From: Cytobacillus oceanisediminis 2691
GTDB lineage: Bacteria > Bacillota > Bacilli > Bacillales > Cytobacillaceae
DNA length: 64,000 nucleotides
NCBI RefSeq assembly: GCF_007678455.1
Contig: NZ_VEEP01000001.1
Coordinates: 558,001 to 622,000 of the forward strand
Direction of reading: 5' to 3'
Shown: positions 46,406 through 64,000 of the stretch, one piece after another
Layout: the number at the start of each line of letters is the position of its first letter
How positions within the stretch are numbered: position 1 is the first letter of the stretch
Made by a program: the position numbers and the translations under genes
The notes under the pieces: model-generated
Databases searched by the model: none
Seen by the model: the letters and a program-made list of their open reading frames with translations, nothing else
Told to the model about the DNA's origin: nothing

Positions 46406-47176
46406 ATGGAAAAATGGACAATTGGCGAAATTGATCAGCTGCTATTCAGTAAAGATAAAGTGGACATGGAGTACATTGAGGAATTAAAAAAAGACAACCG
46501 CAAAGGTGTTCAAAAACTCATCATGAAGTGGGAAAAGCAAGAAGCGCAAAAAGAGCTGGCCCACAGTCAGTTTGTTGAGATGACTTCCTTTGAAAGGAAG
46601 TATCGGTCCCAGGGTTTCAGATTCATTGCCGGTATTGACGAAGCTGGCCGAGGACCGCTTGCTGGGCCAGTTGTAGCAGGGGCAGTCATCTTGTCAGAGG
46701 ATTTTTACCTTCCGGGTCTCAATGATTCTAAGAAACTGACAGAAGCGAAAAGGGAAGAATATTTTGAAATCATTAATGACCAAGCCCTTGCTGTCGGAAT
46801 CGGAATCATCGAAGCTGCCGAAATAGATGAAATCAATATTCTTCAGGCCAGTAAAAAAGCGATGCTCCATGCGGCAGCACAATTGGAAATCAATCCTGAT
46901 TTTCTTTTGATTGATGCAGTCAAGCTGGAGACACCTTATCCCTTTGAAGCATTAATCAAGGGGGATGCCAGAAGCGTTTCCATAGCCGCGGCTTCGGTCA
47001 TTGCAAAAGTAACACGGGACAGGCTGATGAAGGATCTGGGTCTCAGATTCCCGCAATATGGCTTTCAGGCAAATATGGGTTATGGAACTGCTGAGCATTT
47101 GAATGCCCTGAGAGAACACGGTGTTACAGAACATCACCGCAAGACCTTCGCTCCAGTAAGAGAGTGTATTCAGTAG
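46406..47176 (+). CDS. rnhB: Ribonuclease HII
   Basis: This 256-residue RNase removes ribonucleotides and RNA primers from DNA hybrids. The catalytic acids are in AGIDEAGRGPLAGPV and LLIDAVKL, with DSKKLT between. An N-terminal extension of about 70 residues, usual in bacilli, precedes the catalytic core. It runs to within 22 bp of ylqG. Confidence 0.96.
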   Translation: MEKWTIGEIDQLLFSKDKVDMEYIEELKKDNRKGVQKLIMKWEKQEAQKELAHSQFVEMTSFERKYRSQGFRFIAGIDEAGRGPLAGPVVAGAVILSEDFYLPGLNDSKKLTEAKREEYFEIINDQALAVGIGIIEAAEIDEINILQASKKAMLHAAAQLEINPDFLLIDAVKLETPYPFEALIKGDARSVSIAAASVIAKVTRDRLMKDLGLRFPQYGFQANMGYGTAEHLNALREHGVTEHHRKTFAPVRECIQ

Positions 47177-47198: not shown

Positions 47199-49055
47199 AT
47201 GGAAACAGGAGCGCTTAAAAGTTTATTTAACCAAAAGACAACACAGCAGACAAAAATAACCGAATTTCGTCCAGGACAAATCATCAATGGCAAAATCATT
47301 AAGCTATTCCCTGATCAAGTAGCAGAAGTCCAAATCGGGAACCAAAAAATGGTCGCCCAATTAGAAGTGCCGTTATCGGCAAATGAACGCTACTGGTTTC
47401 AGGTTCAGCCTGGAGAAGGAAAAGTCCACTTAAAGCTGATCAGTTCAAGTGGTGAGGAGAAGGGCCAGCCGGGAAACCTGACCAGGATCCTGTCTGAATT
47501 CGGATTGCAGCCGACAAAGGAAAACCTGGATCTTGTCCGTTTTTTCATCAAAGAACAGCTCCCTGTCAATGGTGAGCTTCTTAAACTCGCCTCAGAATGG
47601 TTGAAAACGGTTGGATCCCGGACTGCCGGGGAGGATGCCATAAAGATGCTGCTGACAAGGGGGATGCCTGTCACCAAGGCTGCATTTGAGGCCCTTTATA
47701 CAGCCACGAAGGAACAATCTCTGGTTATGCTTTTGGAACAGCTCGGAAAGTCCCTGGAGGCAGCAGATGAGTCAGATACAGTTGTAAGCCTGAGAAAGCT
47801 ATTGAATGAAATGCTTCCAGCAAATAAGACAATATCTTCTGCAGCCGCTTTAAACCATCTTGCTTCAGCATGGCTCGGCAGCAATGGCAAGCAAAGCGAA
47901 GCCGCTCTGGACCTTCTTCAACAGTACGGAGCGATTCCCGCGAAAAGCAGTGAAAAGAATGTTTTACAGCAGCTGTTATCGAGTCTTCAACATCTGGATG
48001 GTGCGGAAGAGAATCTGCCAGAAGGATTGAAGTTTCTAAAAACAGTCCTAACGCTTATCGAGAAGGGAGACAGTTTTTCCGCTCGGCAGATCATGGCAAG
48101 CTTCATTAATGATAAATCATTCCCTGTCAACGATCTCGCAGACTCACTTCATTTCATTTTTGACAGGGCAAATGGCAAAGACACAAATACACAAACCGGG
48201 CTTCTGGCCTTTAAACAGTTATTATCACATTCTAATGCCAGCAGTGCGCTGTCCCTCTTACTTGCAGGTAAGGCAGACTGGGAACAAGCAGGATTAAAAC
48301 TGCTGGAGGCTGCAGGAAGACAGCAGCAAGCCGGTACAGTGGGGATGCATGCCCAGCTGTTATCGGAAGCGGCTGGCAAAGCGGAGCCGGCACCTGCACT
48401 TCAGGAAAACGGACTCTCACTTCTGTCGGATGTAAAGATTAAAAGATTCCTTTCTGCTCTGGGTCTATCTTACGAACATCATCTTAGTGAAATCATGAAG
48501 GATGGTGAGGTGGGAAAAACGCAAGTCCCTGATACCCTTAAATCACTGACACTTCGATTGTTGAATGAAAATCCTCCCCAGATTGTCAAAGACGCTGCAG
48601 AGCCGCTGGTAAACAAACTTACAGGCTTCCAGCTGCTATCGCAGGAAGCAGGCCCCATCCAGCAGCTCGTGGTCCAGGTCCCAATTTTTTTGGGAGGGAA
48701 GACAAGCGAACTCTCGATGCAGTGGAGTGGGAAAAGGACTGAAGATGGCAAAATAGACGCTGATTTCTGCCGTGTCCTCTTCTATCTGAAACTGCAGTAC
48801 CTCGACGATACCATAATCGATATGCAGGTTCAGAATCGAGTCATGAGCATACAGATTTTTAATGATCAACCCGATCTTAAAAAAATGGCCGAACAGATGA
48901 CGCCGATATTGAAAACGAAGTTATCTGAACTGGAATATAAATTATCATCTGTTCACTTCCATGTCCCTGGAGAATCCAATGGCAGAAGTAATCAGCGCAG
49001 TCTGTCAGAATTATACGGGCAAAAAGAATATTATGGAGTGGATATTAAAATATGA
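47199..49055 (+). CDS. ylqG: YlqG: FliK-like hook-length control domain protein
   Basis: This 618-residue protein has no assigned function. The N-terminal part (about residues 25-85, GQIINGKIIKLFPDQVAEVQ) looks like a small beta domain. A long helical, alanine- and leucine-rich middle follows. The C terminus (about 500-590) has the pattern of the FliK C-terminal domain (LDDTIIDMQVQNRVMSIQIF followed by LKTKLSELEYKL). It overlaps ylqH, an FlhB-C-like protein, by 4 nt, which mirrors the FliK-FlhB switch pair of the flagellar export gate. It lies 12 kb before the flagellar operon. The domain call is by eye. Confidence 0.75.
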   Translation: METGALKSLFNQKTTQQTKITEFRPGQIINGKIIKLFPDQVAEVQIGNQKMVAQLEVPLSANERYWFQVQPGEGKVHLKLISSSGEEKGQPGNLTRILSEFGLQPTKENLDLVRFFIKEQLPVNGELLKLASEWLKTVGSRTAGEDAIKMLLTRGMPVTKAAFEALYTATKEQSLVMLLEQLGKSLEAADESDTVVSLRKLLNEMLPANKTISSAAALNHLASAWLGSNGKQSEAALDLLQQYGAIPAKSSEKNVLQQLLSSLQHLDGAEENLPEGLKFLKTVLTLIEKGDSFSARQIMASFINDKSFPVNDLADSLHFIFDRANGKDTNTQTGLLAFKQLLSHSNASSALSLLLAGKADWEQAGLKLLEAAGRQQQAGTVGMHAQLLSEAAGKAEPAPALQENGLSLLSDVKIKRFLSALGLSYEHHLSEIMKDGEVGKTQVPDTLKSLTLRLLNENPPQIVKDAAEPLVNKLTGFQLLSQEAGPIQQLVVQVPIFLGGKTSELSMQWSGKRTEDGKIDADFCRVLFYLKLQYLDDTIIDMQVQNRVMSIQIFNDQPDLKKMAEQMTPILKTKLSELEYKLSSVHFHVPGESNGRSNQRSLSELYGQKEYYGVDIKI

Positions 49056-49336
49056 AAACTCCTAAGCATACAAGAAAGACAGCTGTTGCCTTGGGTTATA
49101 ACGCGGGAAGCATGGATGCCCCGAAAGTGATGGCGAAGGGAAAGGGCCTGGTGGCTCAGCAAATCATAGACAAAGCAAAGGATCATGATATTCCCATCCA
49201 GGAAGACCCATCCCTGGTTGAAGTATTGTCACAGCTGGAATTGAATGAAAGAATACCAGAAGAGCTGTACCAGGCAGTCGCCGAGGTTTTTTCCTATATC
49301 TATCATCTTGATCAGCAAGCAGGGAAACGAAATTAA
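49052..49336 (+). CDS. ylqH: YlqH: FlhB C-terminal-like protein without a membrane part
   Basis: This 94-residue protein matches the cytosolic C-terminal domain of FlhB/EscU (SMDAPKVMAKGKGLVAQQI, PIQEDPSLVEVL, RIPEELYQAVAEVFSYIY). It lacks the FlhB membrane part and the self-cleavage NPTH motif; the corresponding place reads HTRKTAVALGYN. It is translationally coupled to ylqG. In flagella the FlhB C domain binds FliK to change export substrate, so YlqG-YlqH may be a derived or accessory switch pair. That is inference. Confidence 0.85.
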   Translation: MKTPKHTRKTAVALGYNAGSMDAPKVMAKGKGLVAQQIIDKAKDHDIPIQEDPSLVEVLSQLELNERIPEELYQAVAEVFSYIYHLDQQAGKRN

Positions 49337-61448: not shown

Positions 61449-61478
61449 CATCCTGTTTTGTAAATGAGAGGTGTAAAA

Positions 61479-61874
61479 ATGAAGTTGTTTTCAAATACGG
61501 TATCGACGCTGGAACATGCGCTGAACTACTCTTCTGCAAAGCAGAAAGTTATTTCGCAAAATATTGCCAATGTTGATACGCCGAACTATAAAGCGAAGGA
61601 TGTGTCTTTCAAAGCGGTATTCCAGGATGTCATGGGACAATCCTTTCAAGCTCATAAATCGGACTCACGACATTATGATTTCAGCAGCAAGCCAAGCCGC
61701 ATGCCTGGAATCATCAGTAAACCAAACGTCAATTATAACGAGAATGGGAATAGCGTTGATTTGGATAAAGAAATGGCCGATATGGCAACGAATCAAATTT
61801 ACTACAATGCGCTGACTGAAAGAATCAATGGTAAATTCAATTCGCTCCAATCTGTCATAAGAGGAGGCAAGTAA
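61479..61874 (+). CDS. flgB: Flagellar basal-body rod protein FlgB
   Basis: This 131-residue proximal rod protein is exported by the flagellar type III system. The N terminus MKLFSNTVSTLEHAL and the rod signature ISQNIANVDTPNYKAKDV are visible, and the heptad C-terminal helix ends the protein. ATG 61479 has GAGAGGTG 5 bp upstream; ATG 61464 overlaps it. It is the first gene of the fla/che operon. Confidence 0.95.
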   Translation: MKLFSNTVSTLEHALNYSSAKQKVISQNIANVDTPNYKAKDVSFKAVFQDVMGQSFQAHKSDSRHYDFSSKPSRMPGIISKPNVNYNENGNSVDLDKEMADMATNQIYYNALTERINGKFNSLQSVIRGGK

Positions 61875-61876
61875 GG

Positions 61877-62326
61877 ATGACAATCTTTCATAGCATGAAC
61901 ACTACAGCTTCTGCGTTAACTGCGCAGCGTTTGAGAATGGACGTCATTTCCTCCAATATGGCGAATGTGGATTCCACAAGAGGGGTGAATGGAGAGCCTT
62001 ACCGCAGGAAGATGGTCGTCATGCAGCCAAAGGAAGGAAACTTTTCTTCATTTCTCAATAAAGCAATGGGAAAAACAGACAGCTCGGGAGCTGGAAATGG
62101 AGTTAAAGTAACAAGAATCATAGAAGACAGAGAAAACCCGCTCAAAATGATATATGATCCAGAGCATCCCGATGCAGATGCAGATGGCTATGTTGCATAT
62201 CCCAATGTGGACCCCTTGAGAGAAATGGTGGATTTGATAAGCGCTACTCGCTCCTATGAAGCAAACGTCACAGTTTTCAACGCCTCTAAAGGCATGATGA
62301 TGAAAGCACTTGAAATTGGAAAGTAA
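61877..62326 (+). CDS. flgC: Flagellar basal-body rod protein FlgC
   Basis: This 149-residue rod protein has the N-terminal FHSMNTTASALTAQRLRMDV and the rod motif SNMANVDSTRG. The C-terminal SATRSYEANVTVFNASKGM is diagnostic of FlgC/FlgG-type axial proteins. It starts 2 bp after the flgB stop. Confidence 0.97.
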   Translation: MTIFHSMNTTASALTAQRLRMDVISSNMANVDSTRGVNGEPYRRKMVVMQPKEGNFSSFLNKAMGKTDSSGAGNGVKVTRIIEDRENPLKMIYDPEHPDADADGYVAYPNVDPLREMVDLISATRSYEANVTVFNASKGMMMKALEIGK

Positions 62327-62338
62327 GGAGATAACTAA

Positions 62339-62650
62339 ATGAACACAGCTGGGATCAATTCAGTAACCCAAATGGTCAAGCCGTTTGAAACAAAAGGGTC
62401 TACTCCCACACCTACACCATACGAAGCGCAGAAAAGTTTTTCGTCCGTACTTAAGCAATCAATTGAAAATTTAAATCAAACCCAGCTTCAATCCGATATA
62501 CTGACAGAAAAATTGGCGCGTGGAGAAAATGTTGACCTCCACCAGGTGATGATCGCAAGCCAAAAGGCAAGCATAACACTGCAGGCAACCATGGAAGTCA
62601 GAAATAAAGTAATCGAAGCGTATCAGGAAATGATGAGAATGCAAGTTTAA
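62339..62650 (+). CDS. fliE: Flagellar hook-basal body protein FliE
   Basis: This 103-residue adaptor joins the MS ring (FliF) to the rod. The conserved C-terminal helices contain NVDLHQVMIASQKASITLQA and a terminal VRNKVIEAYQEMMRMQV. It lies 12 bp after flgC. Confidence 0.96.
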   Translation: MNTAGINSVTQMVKPFETKGSTPTPTPYEAQKSFSSVLKQSIENLNQTQLQSDILTEKLARGENVDLHQVMIASQKASITLQATMEVRNKVIEAYQEMMRMQV

Positions 62651-62678
62651 TATTATAGGCTAAAAACTAAGATTAGAT

Positions 62679-62717
62679 CGGTTATTAGCTGTATAAAAAG
62701 AAGAGACATAATAACCG
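62679..62717 (+). promoter_or_regulatory. Hairpin abutting the fliF ribosome site
   Basis: CGGTTATTA (62679-62687) pairs perfectly with TAATAACCG (62709-62717) across a 21-nt loop. The right arm runs straight into the GGGGGA ribosome site of fliF (62717-62722). It may tune fliF translation or protect the 3' end of a processed flgB-flgC-fliE transcript. Confidence 0.45.
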
Positions 62718-62727
62718 GGGGATTGAA

Positions 62728-64000
62728 ATGAAAGAAACCGTTCAAAAGTATCTACATACAATGAAGGATTTCTGGCAAGGGCGCACCAGAAAACAAAAAA
62801 TAAGTATTGGGGCTTCTATTTTCTTTGTTTTGACCGTTGCCGTCCTTACCGCCTTTTTTGTAACAAGGACTTCCCTAGTTCCGCTTTATAGCAATTTATC
62901 GCCCGCAGAGACTGGAACGATCAAAGAAAGTCTGGATGCCAGGGGCATTACATCTGAAATAACGGATGGCGGAAAAACCATCATGGTTCCCGAAGAGGCG
63001 GTCGATAGCTTGAAAGTAGAGCTGGCGGCTGAAGGGATTCCGAAATCTGGCAGTATCGATTATTCCTTCTTTAGCCAGAACGCAGGTATGGGCATGACAG
63101 ATAATGAGTTCAATGTATTGAAGCTTGAAGCCATGCAGACGGAATTGGCCAACTTGATGAAAGGAATCGACGGAGTAAATGATGCTAATGTAATGATTAA
63201 CCTTCCTGAAAAGGGGATATTCGTCAGTGATAATGCTGGGCCGGCTTCAGCATCCATCGTGCTAAATACAAGTCCGGGTTATCAATTCAAAGATGAACAG
63301 ATCACTGCTCTTTACCATCTGGTAGCAAAAAGTGTTCCGAATCTTCCTACAGATAATATCGTCATCATGAATCAGTTTTTTGAGTATTTTGATTTAAAAA
63401 ATGAAAAAAATTCCAGTGGTGCTACATTTGCCTCACAGCATGAAATAAAACAACAGATTGAAAGAGACGTCCAGAGACAAGTCCAAAACATGCTCGGAAC
63501 GCTTATGGGTCATGATAAAGTCGTTGTTTCAGTAACTGCCGATATTGACTTTACCCAGGAAAACAGGGAAGAAAACATTGTTGAGCCTGTTGATAAAGAA
63601 AATATGGAAGGCATCGCAATCAGTGCCCAGCGGATCACAGAGACATTCACCGGCAATGCAGATCAGGCTGGAGGAATTCCTGAAGGAGGAAATCCTGGTG
63701 AAACGACTGGTTCCCAATACCTTGAAGGAGCGACCGGGAACGGTGATTATGAGCGAGTGGAAGAGACCATTAATAATGAAGTAAGCAGGATCCGAAAAGA
63801 GATAACAGAAAGCCCGTACAAGGTGAGGGATTTGGGAATCCAGGTAATGGTTGAACCTCCGACTCCTGATGACCCTAATTCATTGCCTCAGGAAAGAAGA
63901 GAAGATATAACAAAAATCCTGGGTACGATTATAAGGACAACAATTGACAAAGATGCTCTTGGATCAGAGTTGACTGATGAATTGATCGAGGACAAAGTCG
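62728..64000 (+). CDS. fliF: Flagellar M-ring protein FliF (5' part)
   Basis: About 424 N-terminal residues of the MS-ring protein are present, and the frame is still open at the window end. The N terminus MKETVQKYLHTMKDFWQGRT is followed by a membrane segment (about residues 24-46) and the ring-building motif region with PLYSNLSPAET. A periplasmic-type domain follows, with TDNEFNVLKLEAMQTELAN and the VNDANVMINLPE stretch. The second membrane segment and the FliG-binding tail lie outside. ATG 62728 follows GGGGGA. Confidence 0.96.
   Translation, partial: MKETVQKYLHTMKDFWQGRTRKQKISIGASIFFVLTVAVLTAFFVTRTSLVPLYSNLSPAETGTIKESLDARGITSEITDGGKTIMVPEEAVDSLKVELAAEGIPKSGSIDYSFFSQNAGMGMTDNEFNVLKLEAMQTELANLMKGIDGVNDANVMINLPEKGIFVSDNAGPASASIVLNTSPGYQFKDEQITALYHLVAKSVPNLPTDNIVIMNQFFEYFDLKNEKNSSGATFASQHEIKQQIERDVQRQVQNMLGTLMGHDKVVVSVTADIDFTQENREENIVEPVDKENMEGIAISAQRITETFTGNADQAGGIPEGGNPGETTGSQYLEGATGNGDYERVEETINNEVSRIRKEITESPYKVRDLGIQVMVEPPTPDDPNSLPQERREDITKILGTIIRTTIDKDALGSELTDELIEDKV

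What the first reader, a model, noticed from the sequence alone, without database searches (positions are those of the whole stretch)
47199..49336. A FliK-like and FlhB-C-like gene pair outside the flagellar operon
YlqG ends in a FliK-type domain and YlqH is an isolated FlhB cytosolic domain without membrane part or NPTH cleavage site. The two are translationally coupled. In flagella, exactly these two domains meet to switch export from hook to filament. A soluble, uncleavable FlhB-C with its own FliK partner could act as a decoy, an assembly checkpoint, or a repurposed module. The pair is conserved here in synteny with B. subtilis, yet I know of no function for it.
Basis: partly seen in the sequence, partly recalled or inferred. 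Interest (0 to 1): 0.65.

Follow-up and report, generated by a model that had tools for sequence, protein, structure and literature searches.

The report
Paired FliK-like and FlhB-like export proteins
Two overlapping genes of a Bacillus relative encode a soluble look-alike of the two parts that meet to switch flagellum building from hook to filament; the pair is kept almost only where flagella are kept, so it is probably an unstudied accessory of flagellar protein export.

Summary
ylqG (47199-49055) and ylqH (49052-49336) overlap by ATGA. YlqH is only the post-cleavage half of FlhB (FlhB-CC): no membrane part, and no NPTH in any of 141 homologues examined. YlqG's C-terminal domain has the FliK/T3S4 fold (the solved PscP and FliK domains are its two best PDB matches), then a disordered linker and a conserved last-six-residue motif (GVDIKI) like the end of E. 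coli FliK (GVDIFA). In Salmonella FliK the last five residues are proposed to act on FlhB-CC. The motif is in 80 of 80 named loci (all Bacillales-type) and 55 of 60 wider Bacillota loci, also with reversed gene order.
The pair tracks flagella: of 299 class-level genomes, a YlqG profile hits 165 of 213 with FlhB and 0 of 86 without. Two non-flagellate relatives lack it cleanly; one has broken remnants. A second paralogous pair sits beside flagellin, fliS or fliD in 4 of 4 loci inspected.
Best reading: a cytosolic FliK/FlhB-CC paralogue pair that modulates flagellar export specificity in trans. Complex formation, direction of effect and phenotype are inferred. YlqH belongs with TIGR00789 and resembles FlhX/HP1575; the FliK-tailed partner and flagellum-bound distribution are the new part.

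The parts
47199..49055 (+). ylqG, 618 aa, FliK-family paralogue
   Evidence: ORF; AF2 model mean pLDDT 84.3, pTM 0.73
47280..47444 (+). YlqG residues 28-82: N-terminal beta-barrel, OB-like; role unknown
   Evidence: OB-type chains among VIA-align rows, Z about 6-7, not decisive
47469..48638 (+). YlqG residues 91-480: helical region, variable in length among homologues
   Evidence: upstream-ORF lengths 145-1325 aa in 133 loci
48657..48962 (+). YlqG residues 487-588: FliK/T3S4-like substrate-specificity-switch fold
   Evidence: PscP SS domain 5cuk and FliK-C 2rrl are Foldseek ranks 1 and 2 and the only two chains with Z >= 5
48963..49034 (+). YlqG residues 589-612: disordered linker
   Evidence: pLDDT below 50 over 595-613
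49035..49052 (+). YlqG residues 613-618 GVDIKI: conserved C-terminal motif, like FliK's last residues
   Evidence: G613 and D615 are 2 of only 5 invariant columns in 57 YlqGs; tail tallies; E. coli FliK ends GVDIFA
49052..49055 (+). ATGA stop/start overlap of ylqG and ylqH
   Evidence: the same frame relation in 78 of 79 named loci with a picked upstream ORF
49052..49336 (+). ylqH, 94 aa, stand-alone FlhB-CC paralogue (TIGR00789-like), no NPTH
49118..49291 (+). stretch holding YlqH A23, P24, A77, F80 = Salmonella FlhB A286, P287, A341, L344, the early-substrate pocket
   Evidence: numbering from the full-length FlhB alignment; pocket residues from PMC13344023; A 124/141, P 141/141, A 141/141, F 85 + L 52 of 141
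46406..47176 (+). rnhB, upstream neighbour (context)
   Evidence: name from recall; ORF; recurrent neighbour
61464..63999 (+). flgB, flgC, fliE, start of fliF: beginning of the fla/che operon (context)
   Evidence: names by eye from sequence

Best explanation
ylqGH encodes a cytosolic duplicate of the hook-to-filament switch pair. YlqG is a FliK paralogue (T3S4 core, disordered linker, FliK-type C-terminal motif). YlqH is a FlhB-CC paralogue that needs no autocleavage because it is encoded already separated. Shown: anatomy, conservation of the motif, retention of the substrate-pocket residues, dependence of the pair on the presence of flagella, and a second pair beside filament genes. Inferred: YlqG binds YlqH through its T3S4 core and last residues, as FliK is proposed to act on FlhB-CC; the pair then acts at the export gate in trans. 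The likeliest action is that YlqH is an exchangeable FlhB-CC held or delivered by YlqG, which tunes early/late substrate choice after FliK has removed the original FlhB-CC. About 0.85 that it serves flagellar export, 0.7 that the two proteins bind each other, 0.35-0.4 for the exchangeable-CC step itself.
For: Co-occurrence: of 299 class-level genomes 213 have FlhB; 193 of these have two or more Bac_export_2 matches and 165 have a YlqG-profile match; of the 86 without FlhB none has either; YlqG is in 165 of the 193 and 0 of the 20 single-match genomes. Loss: G431 and G453, with no FlhB, FlhA or flagellin, have rnhB followed directly by sucC; G418, likewise without them, keeps only broken ylqG fragments. 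Fold. Motif: 80 of 80 named loci (78 strict, 2 loose) and 55 of 60 phylum loci (45 strict, 10 loose); kept with reversed gene order in L211, L217, L224, L228; E. coli FliK ends GVDIFA; 20 of 71 Bacilli FliK ends score >= 4 bits against 0 of 924 other six-frame ORF ends. Second pair beside flagellin, fliS, fliD or flaG in 4 of 4 loci fetched. Pocket residues kept. Literature (abstract and passages): FliK-dependent removal of FlhB-CC, last five residues proposed to act on it (PMC13344023); last five residues important for switching (PMC10965912, passages); HrcU-C works in trans (PMC3040844, passages).
Against: No complex could be modelled and no phenotype is known. 20 of 213 flagellated class genomes, and G451, lack the pair, so it is not essential for flagella. 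Two draft genomes have YlqH but no FlhB/FlhA hit, though both have flagellin. The window pair is not in a flagellar operon, and no sigma-D-like promoter enrichment was found upstream of window-type pairs (6 of 156 regions, 8.0 expected). Many flagellar FliKs of Bacilli, this genome's included, lack the motif. Genomes are related, so the Fisher P of 1.6e-40 overstates the evidence; only part of the first-look candidates was scored in the large searches, and the weakest YlqG-profile hits (for example G456, E 8e-4) could be FliK.
Confidence: 0.6

Rival explanations
1. Decoy or titrator: YlqH binds FliK or early (hook) substrates away from the export gate, and YlqG controls how much free YlqH there is, so the pair delays or sharpens the switch.
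For: YlqH is soluble by sequence and keeps the substrate-pocket residues; YlqG carries FliK's fold and end motif.
Against: A pure decoy needs no FliK-like partner with a conserved motif; the second pair stands with late filament genes, not hook genes.
Confidence: 0.2
2. Spare part: YlqH alone substitutes for FlhB-CC on the FlhB membrane stub when FlhB-CC is lost, as reported for H. pylori HP1575; YlqG is its chaperone.
For: HP1575 precedent (title seen in the reference list of PMC3040844; the paper itself is not held); HrcU-C functions in trans (PMC3040844, passages).
Against: Does not explain why the partner keeps a FliK switch motif; complementation not tested here.
Confidence: 0.15
3. Non-flagellar role, for example in RNA metabolism with rnhB, suggested by the OB-like barrel of YlqG and the rnhB neighbourhood.
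For: OB-type matches for residues 20-88; rnhB in 78 of 80 named and 18 of 60 phylum loci.
Against: 0 of 86 class-level genomes without FlhB have a YlqG match; in 42 of 60 phylum loci (about 4 kb upstream and 2 kb downstream held) rnhB was not detected.
Confidence: 0.04
4. Functionless remnant of an old flhB/fliK duplication that hitchhikes in conserved operons.
For: No phenotype found in the held literature.
Against: Motif and pocket residues conserved across the phylum; coupled genes kept in most flagellated class genomes and lost with flagella.
Confidence: 0.02

Closest known systems
TIGR00789 flhB_rel (NCBIfam, 'FlhB-like flagellar biosynthesis protein')
   Same: Short stand-alone FlhB-CC homologue; 14 of 14 YlqH rows of A1 match at E <= 1e-10.
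   Different: The model's line as shown names no tested function and no FliK-like partner. The window protein scores 112.8 bits, just under the 117.35-bit cut-off.
FlhX / HP1575 of Campylobacterota
   Same: Stand-alone FlhB C-terminal homologue; a Campylobacterota study names flhX-fliK among the few flagellar genes outside the main cluster in Nitratiruptor (PMC9321776, passages).
   Different: Sequences were not compared here; HP1575 is titled a spare part, and no FliK-tailed partner is described in what I could read.
FliK (T3S4 family, PF02120; PscP/HpaP relatives)
   Same: Fold, disordered linker and last-residue motif.
   Different: YlqG has a folded N-terminal barrel and helical middle, lies outside the fla operon, and coexists with a true FliK.
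FlhB / SctU
   Same: YlqH aligns along the CC half and keeps the pocket residues.
   Different: No membrane domain, no CN half, no NPTH; separate clade (0 misplaced of 109 sequences, support 0.917).

Membership tests
TIGR00789 flhB_rel | Curated score cut-off 117.35 bits | tested here: inconclusive
   Window protein 112.8 bits, E 6.6e-33, so below the cut-off; 14 of 14 rows of A1 match at E <= 1e-10
TIGR00789 flhB_rel | Clusters apart from FlhB (recalled from the family's description) | tested here: met
   Split with 0 misplaced of 109 sequences (35 FlhB), support 0.917
FlhB/SctU export switch protein | Membrane domain | tested here: not met
   Only profile positions 261-335 of 335 matched
FlhB/SctU export switch protein | NPTH autocleavage site | tested here: not met
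   0 of 141 YlqH ORFs
FliK (PF02120) | Pfam gathering score | tested here: not met
   16.3 bits against 29.8 for the window protein
FliK / T3S4 | T3S4 fold | tested here: met
   5cuk and 2rrl are the two best PDB matches, Foldseek E 0.011 and 0.035, Z 6.0 each; moderate values
FliK / T3S4 | Last-residue switch motif | tested here: met
   E. coli FliK GVDIFA against GVDIKI; the role of FliK's last five residues is from PMC10965912 and PMC13344023
FliK / T3S4 | Exported ruler that sets hook length | not testable with these tools
   Needs secretion and hook-length assays; upstream-ORF lengths vary from 145 to 1325 aa
FlhX / HP1575 spare part | Restores export when FlhB-CC is deleted | not testable with these tools
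   No wet-lab data; paper not held

The most novel reading that the evidence does not exclude
Many Gram-positive flagellates have a second, separable layer of the export switch: a soluble FlhB-CC (YlqH) exchanged on and off the export gate by its own FliK-tailed partner, so that the hook-to-filament switch is reversible or tunable rather than one-way. A second copy encoded with flagellin and FliS would do this for filament growth. FliK-type tails would be general handles for FlhB-CC.
Probability: 0.25. Interest if true: 0.85.

Novelty: new variant of a known kind. Interest (0 to 1): 0.6.

Why it matters
How FliK acts on FlhB to switch flagellar and injectisome export is a long-standing question, and a 2026 paper (PMC13344023) proposes that FliK ejects FlhB-CC through its last residues. 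Here is a natural, soluble pair that looks built from exactly those two elements and is found across much of Bacillota. It gives a simple two-protein system to test tail-to-CC binding, and a candidate flagellar function for two genes for which I found no function in the held literature.

Tried and rejected
1) Idea that YlqG's tail mimics the FlhB-CN strand just before the cleavage site (ADVVI-TN|PTH) and donates it to YlqH. A scoring matrix of YlqG tails gives that FlhB stretch only 0.6 bits at the median of 35 FlhBs, null P 0.08, and in 34 of 35 some other FlhB window scores higher. Not supported; kept only as a lead.
2) A model of the joined YlqG-YlqH chain: not possible (see below).
3) Vestigial-fusion origin of the tail: disfavoured because the tail stays on YlqG when gene order is reversed.
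4) Flagellar neighbours of the pair in the wider phylum: 108 of 294 neighbouring ORFs, chosen as nearest, were scanned; RNase HII (9) and UPF0102 (6) lead, with only 2 flagellar rod proteins and 3 MCPs among the 25 of 149 families shown.
5) Sigma-D promoters for the window-type pair: none enriched. For the second pair, 3 of 4 upstream stretches have a match with <= 2 mismatches, no control run for them.
6) Viral carriage: none of 22 pattern matches in IMG/VR encodes a relative.
7) Significance by Foldseek E-value is weak (0.011 and 0.035); with the full-length model 5cuk and 2rrl were only ranks 4 and 11. The claim rests on the rank and identity of the two top hits of the domain model.
8) FliK's end motif is patchy in flagellar FliKs of Bacilli: 31 of 70 by pattern, 20 of 71 by score; this genome's own FliK lacks it. 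YlqG does not simply replace it: 3 of 8 FliKs from genomes with a single FlhB-type match have the motif, 23 of 50 with the pair, 5 of 8 in family f171 and 0 of 4 in f180.
9) Rows dropped or re-assigned before counts: three sub-cut-off hits (G482, G604, G628) were counted as FlhB-negative; after the loci without a fitting upstream ORF were re-inspected. L188 and L246 have no tailed ORF next to YlqH; L229, L242 and L244 miss the pattern; L202 counts as loose on a doubtful 153-aa ORF. The 60 phylum places were picked by hand from the capped list.
10) Paper searches for a described ylqGH function or a tail/strand mechanism found none in the held open-licence library; most subscription journals are not held.

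Full report
What is there. The window is a Mesobacillus-like genome: the best named match of YlqH is 99% identical (a record titled Chryseobacterium, probably mislabelled) and the next ones are Bacillus/Mesobacillus. The genome has a full FlhB and a FliK in a 429-residue frame further downstream; the fla/che operon begins inside the window at flgB, 61464.

YlqH. It matches only the last part of the FlhB profile and aligns with the CC chain of cleaved FlhB structures (3b0z_B, 3b1s_B) and with residues 273-351 of a 383-residue full-length FlhB. It is therefore FlhB-CC rather than the whole cytosolic domain. None of 141 YlqH ORFs has NPTH. YlqHs form one clade apart from 35 FlhBs (109 sequences in all, 0 misplaced, support 0.917), so the duplication looks old. 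PMC13344023 (passages) names A286, P287, A341 and L344 as the FlhB-CC pocket for early substrates. By the alignment these are A23, P24, A77 and F80 here: A in 124, P in 141, A in 141, and F or L in 137 of 141.

YlqG. AlphaFold2 gives an N-terminal barrel (28-82), a helical region (91-480), a beta-rich domain (487-588) and a disordered end. The C-terminal domain folded alone (213 aa, 47 rows, mean pLDDT 83.5) has as its two best PDB matches the PscP SS domain (5cuk; Foldseek E 0.011, Z 6.0, rmsd 3.0, 75 aligned) and FliK-C (2rrl; E 0.035, Z 6.0, rmsd 5.0, 85 aligned); the next Z is 4.9. Z near 6 is moderate; the argument is that both top hits are the expected family. In the full-length search they ranked 4 and 11. 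By sequence, 45 of 58 phylum-wide YlqGs match PF02120 at E <= 0.01, best 4e-13, and 15 of 57 from the named loci plus the window do.

The C-terminal motif. In 57 full-length YlqGs only five columns are invariant, and two of them (G613, D615) lie in the last six residues, which the model shows as disordered. In the 80 named loci all YlqGs end in the motif: 77 strict and 2 loose of 79, and L143 by re-inspection. These 80 are the best-scoring of 587 confirmed loci of a capped scan, so they are close relatives. In 60 hand-picked places across the phylum (59 genomes) the tally after re-inspection is 45 strict, 10 loose, 5 without. In four of them (L211, L217, L224, L228) the order is ylqH-ylqG and the motif is still at YlqG's end, so it is not a side effect of the gene junction. 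E. coli K-12 FliK ends GVDIFA. With a matrix made from YlqG ends alone, 20 of 71 Bacilli FliK ends score >= 4 bits; of 934 other ends of six-frame ORFs of 200 aa or more 10 do, and all ten are YlqG, second-type YlqG or E. coli FliK, leaving 0 of 924. PMC10965912 (passages) states that FliK residues 353-405 are disordered and the last five matter for switching; PMC13344023 (abstract and passages) reports FliK-dependent removal of FlhB-CC and proposes that FliK's last five residues act on it. YlqG thus has the same order of parts as FliK-C, and its neighbour is a FlhB-CC. That they bind is an inference.

Distribution. In 299 class-level genomes 213 have FlhB (best match E below 1e-90); 193 of these have two or more Bac_export_2 matches and 20 have one; 86 have no match over the cut-off, 3 of them with weak hits. 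A separate YlqG profile finds 165 genomes, all among the 193; Fisher P 1.6e-40, not corrected for kinship. The second matches were not inspected one by one in this set. That all 20 single-match genomes, which have flagellar genes, give no YlqG hit argues against many false hits on FliK, but weak hits such as G456 (E 8e-4) are doubtful. Of four phylum genomes with best E above 1e-25, G026 is spurious, G240 has an FlhB fragment, and G271 and G374 have YlqH without FlhB or FlhA. The last two are drafts of 260 and 510 contigs and have flagellin, so they neither support nor refute. Among 61 genomes, the own one and near relatives, 58 gave a YlqG hit. G431 and G453 gave none and have no FlhB, FlhA or flagellin; there sucC follows rnhB directly. 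G418, also without these, keeps only broken fragments. G451 is flagellated without the pair.

A second pair. In one search, twelve genomes showed a further (in G454 the only) YlqG match in another, mostly longer frame (440-1905 aa). I fetched four of the twelve. In all four the long YlqG (730-798 aa, ending GYNFTI, GYDFTI, GYDFSV or GFDFSI) lies beside flagellar filament genes, and in L248, L250 and L252 a 98-aa YlqH ORF was listed with it. Pfam confirms FliS and flagellin in L248, and FliD, FlaG and FliS in L252; the second YlqH of L248 and L252 matches Bac_export_2. In L249 and L250 the flagellin and FliS labels are by eye from similar sequence.

How it probably works. The parts say FliK plus FlhB-CC; the distribution says flagella; the second pair says filament phase. 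FlhB-CC analogues can act in trans (HrcU-C, PMC3040844, passages), and H. pylori HP1575 is titled a spare part for FlhB-CC (title seen in a reference list). The simplest model is that YlqG carries YlqH to, or keeps it from, the export gate, so that YlqH can take the place of FlhB-CC and shift substrate choice. The pair is dispensable for flagella as such, since 20 of 213 flagellated class genomes lack it; a tuning role fits better than an essential one. The direction of the effect cannot be told from sequence.

What is known. TIGR00789 already holds proteins like YlqH. FlhX is listed as a flagellar component in Campylobacterota and Actinobacteria papers, with flhX-fliK outside the main cluster in Nitratiruptor (PMC9321776, PMC10746217, passages). 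Of nine papers holding the string ylqG the one that I opened has it in a mutation table (PMC11523185, passage; listing); the titles of the other eight, and of the six holding ylqH, concern other subjects (listings). I found no description of the FliK-type tail on the partner, of loss together with flagella, or of the pair beside flagellin, within the searches named under Tried and rejected.

Verdict. A real, conserved and flagellum-bound module; a new variant of a known kind. Interest 0.6, because it makes a current question on the export switch testable in a two-protein system, while its mechanism is still inferred.

Noticed in passing
L248, L249 (upstream of the second-type ylqG): Sigma-D-like sites with GCCGATAA / GCCGATAC that begin about 60 bp upstream of the second-type ylqG start, at the same distance in both related genomes.
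   Followed up: partly
window 1-64000: The loose sigma-D pattern (up to 2 mismatches) occurs 12 times against 4.85 expected, 0 of 100 shuffles reaching 12; one lies inside ylqG at 48883.
   Followed up: no
L003:613-1872: The genome's own flagellar FliK lacks the FliK/YlqG C-terminal motif (ends EEALLNTEA), as do many other Bacilli FliKs, those of family f4 for example.
   Followed up: partly
L237 (G303) and rows of G535, G498: Very long YlqG-like frames: 1325 aa beside YlqH in G303, which has two YlqH hits, and PF02120-matching frames of 1353 and 1939 aa elsewhere.
   Followed up: no
L078: A record titled Chryseobacterium sp. ISL-80 carries a YlqH 99% identical to the window's; probably a mislabelled record.
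   Followed up: no
G451 (L256): A flagellated relative of the same order where rnhB is followed directly by sucC and no ylqGH was found by these searches.
   Followed up: partly
window 47280-47444: YlqG's N-terminal OB-like barrel seems present also in compact 314-315-aa YlqGs of reversed-order loci (by eye); its ligand is unknown.
   Followed up: partly
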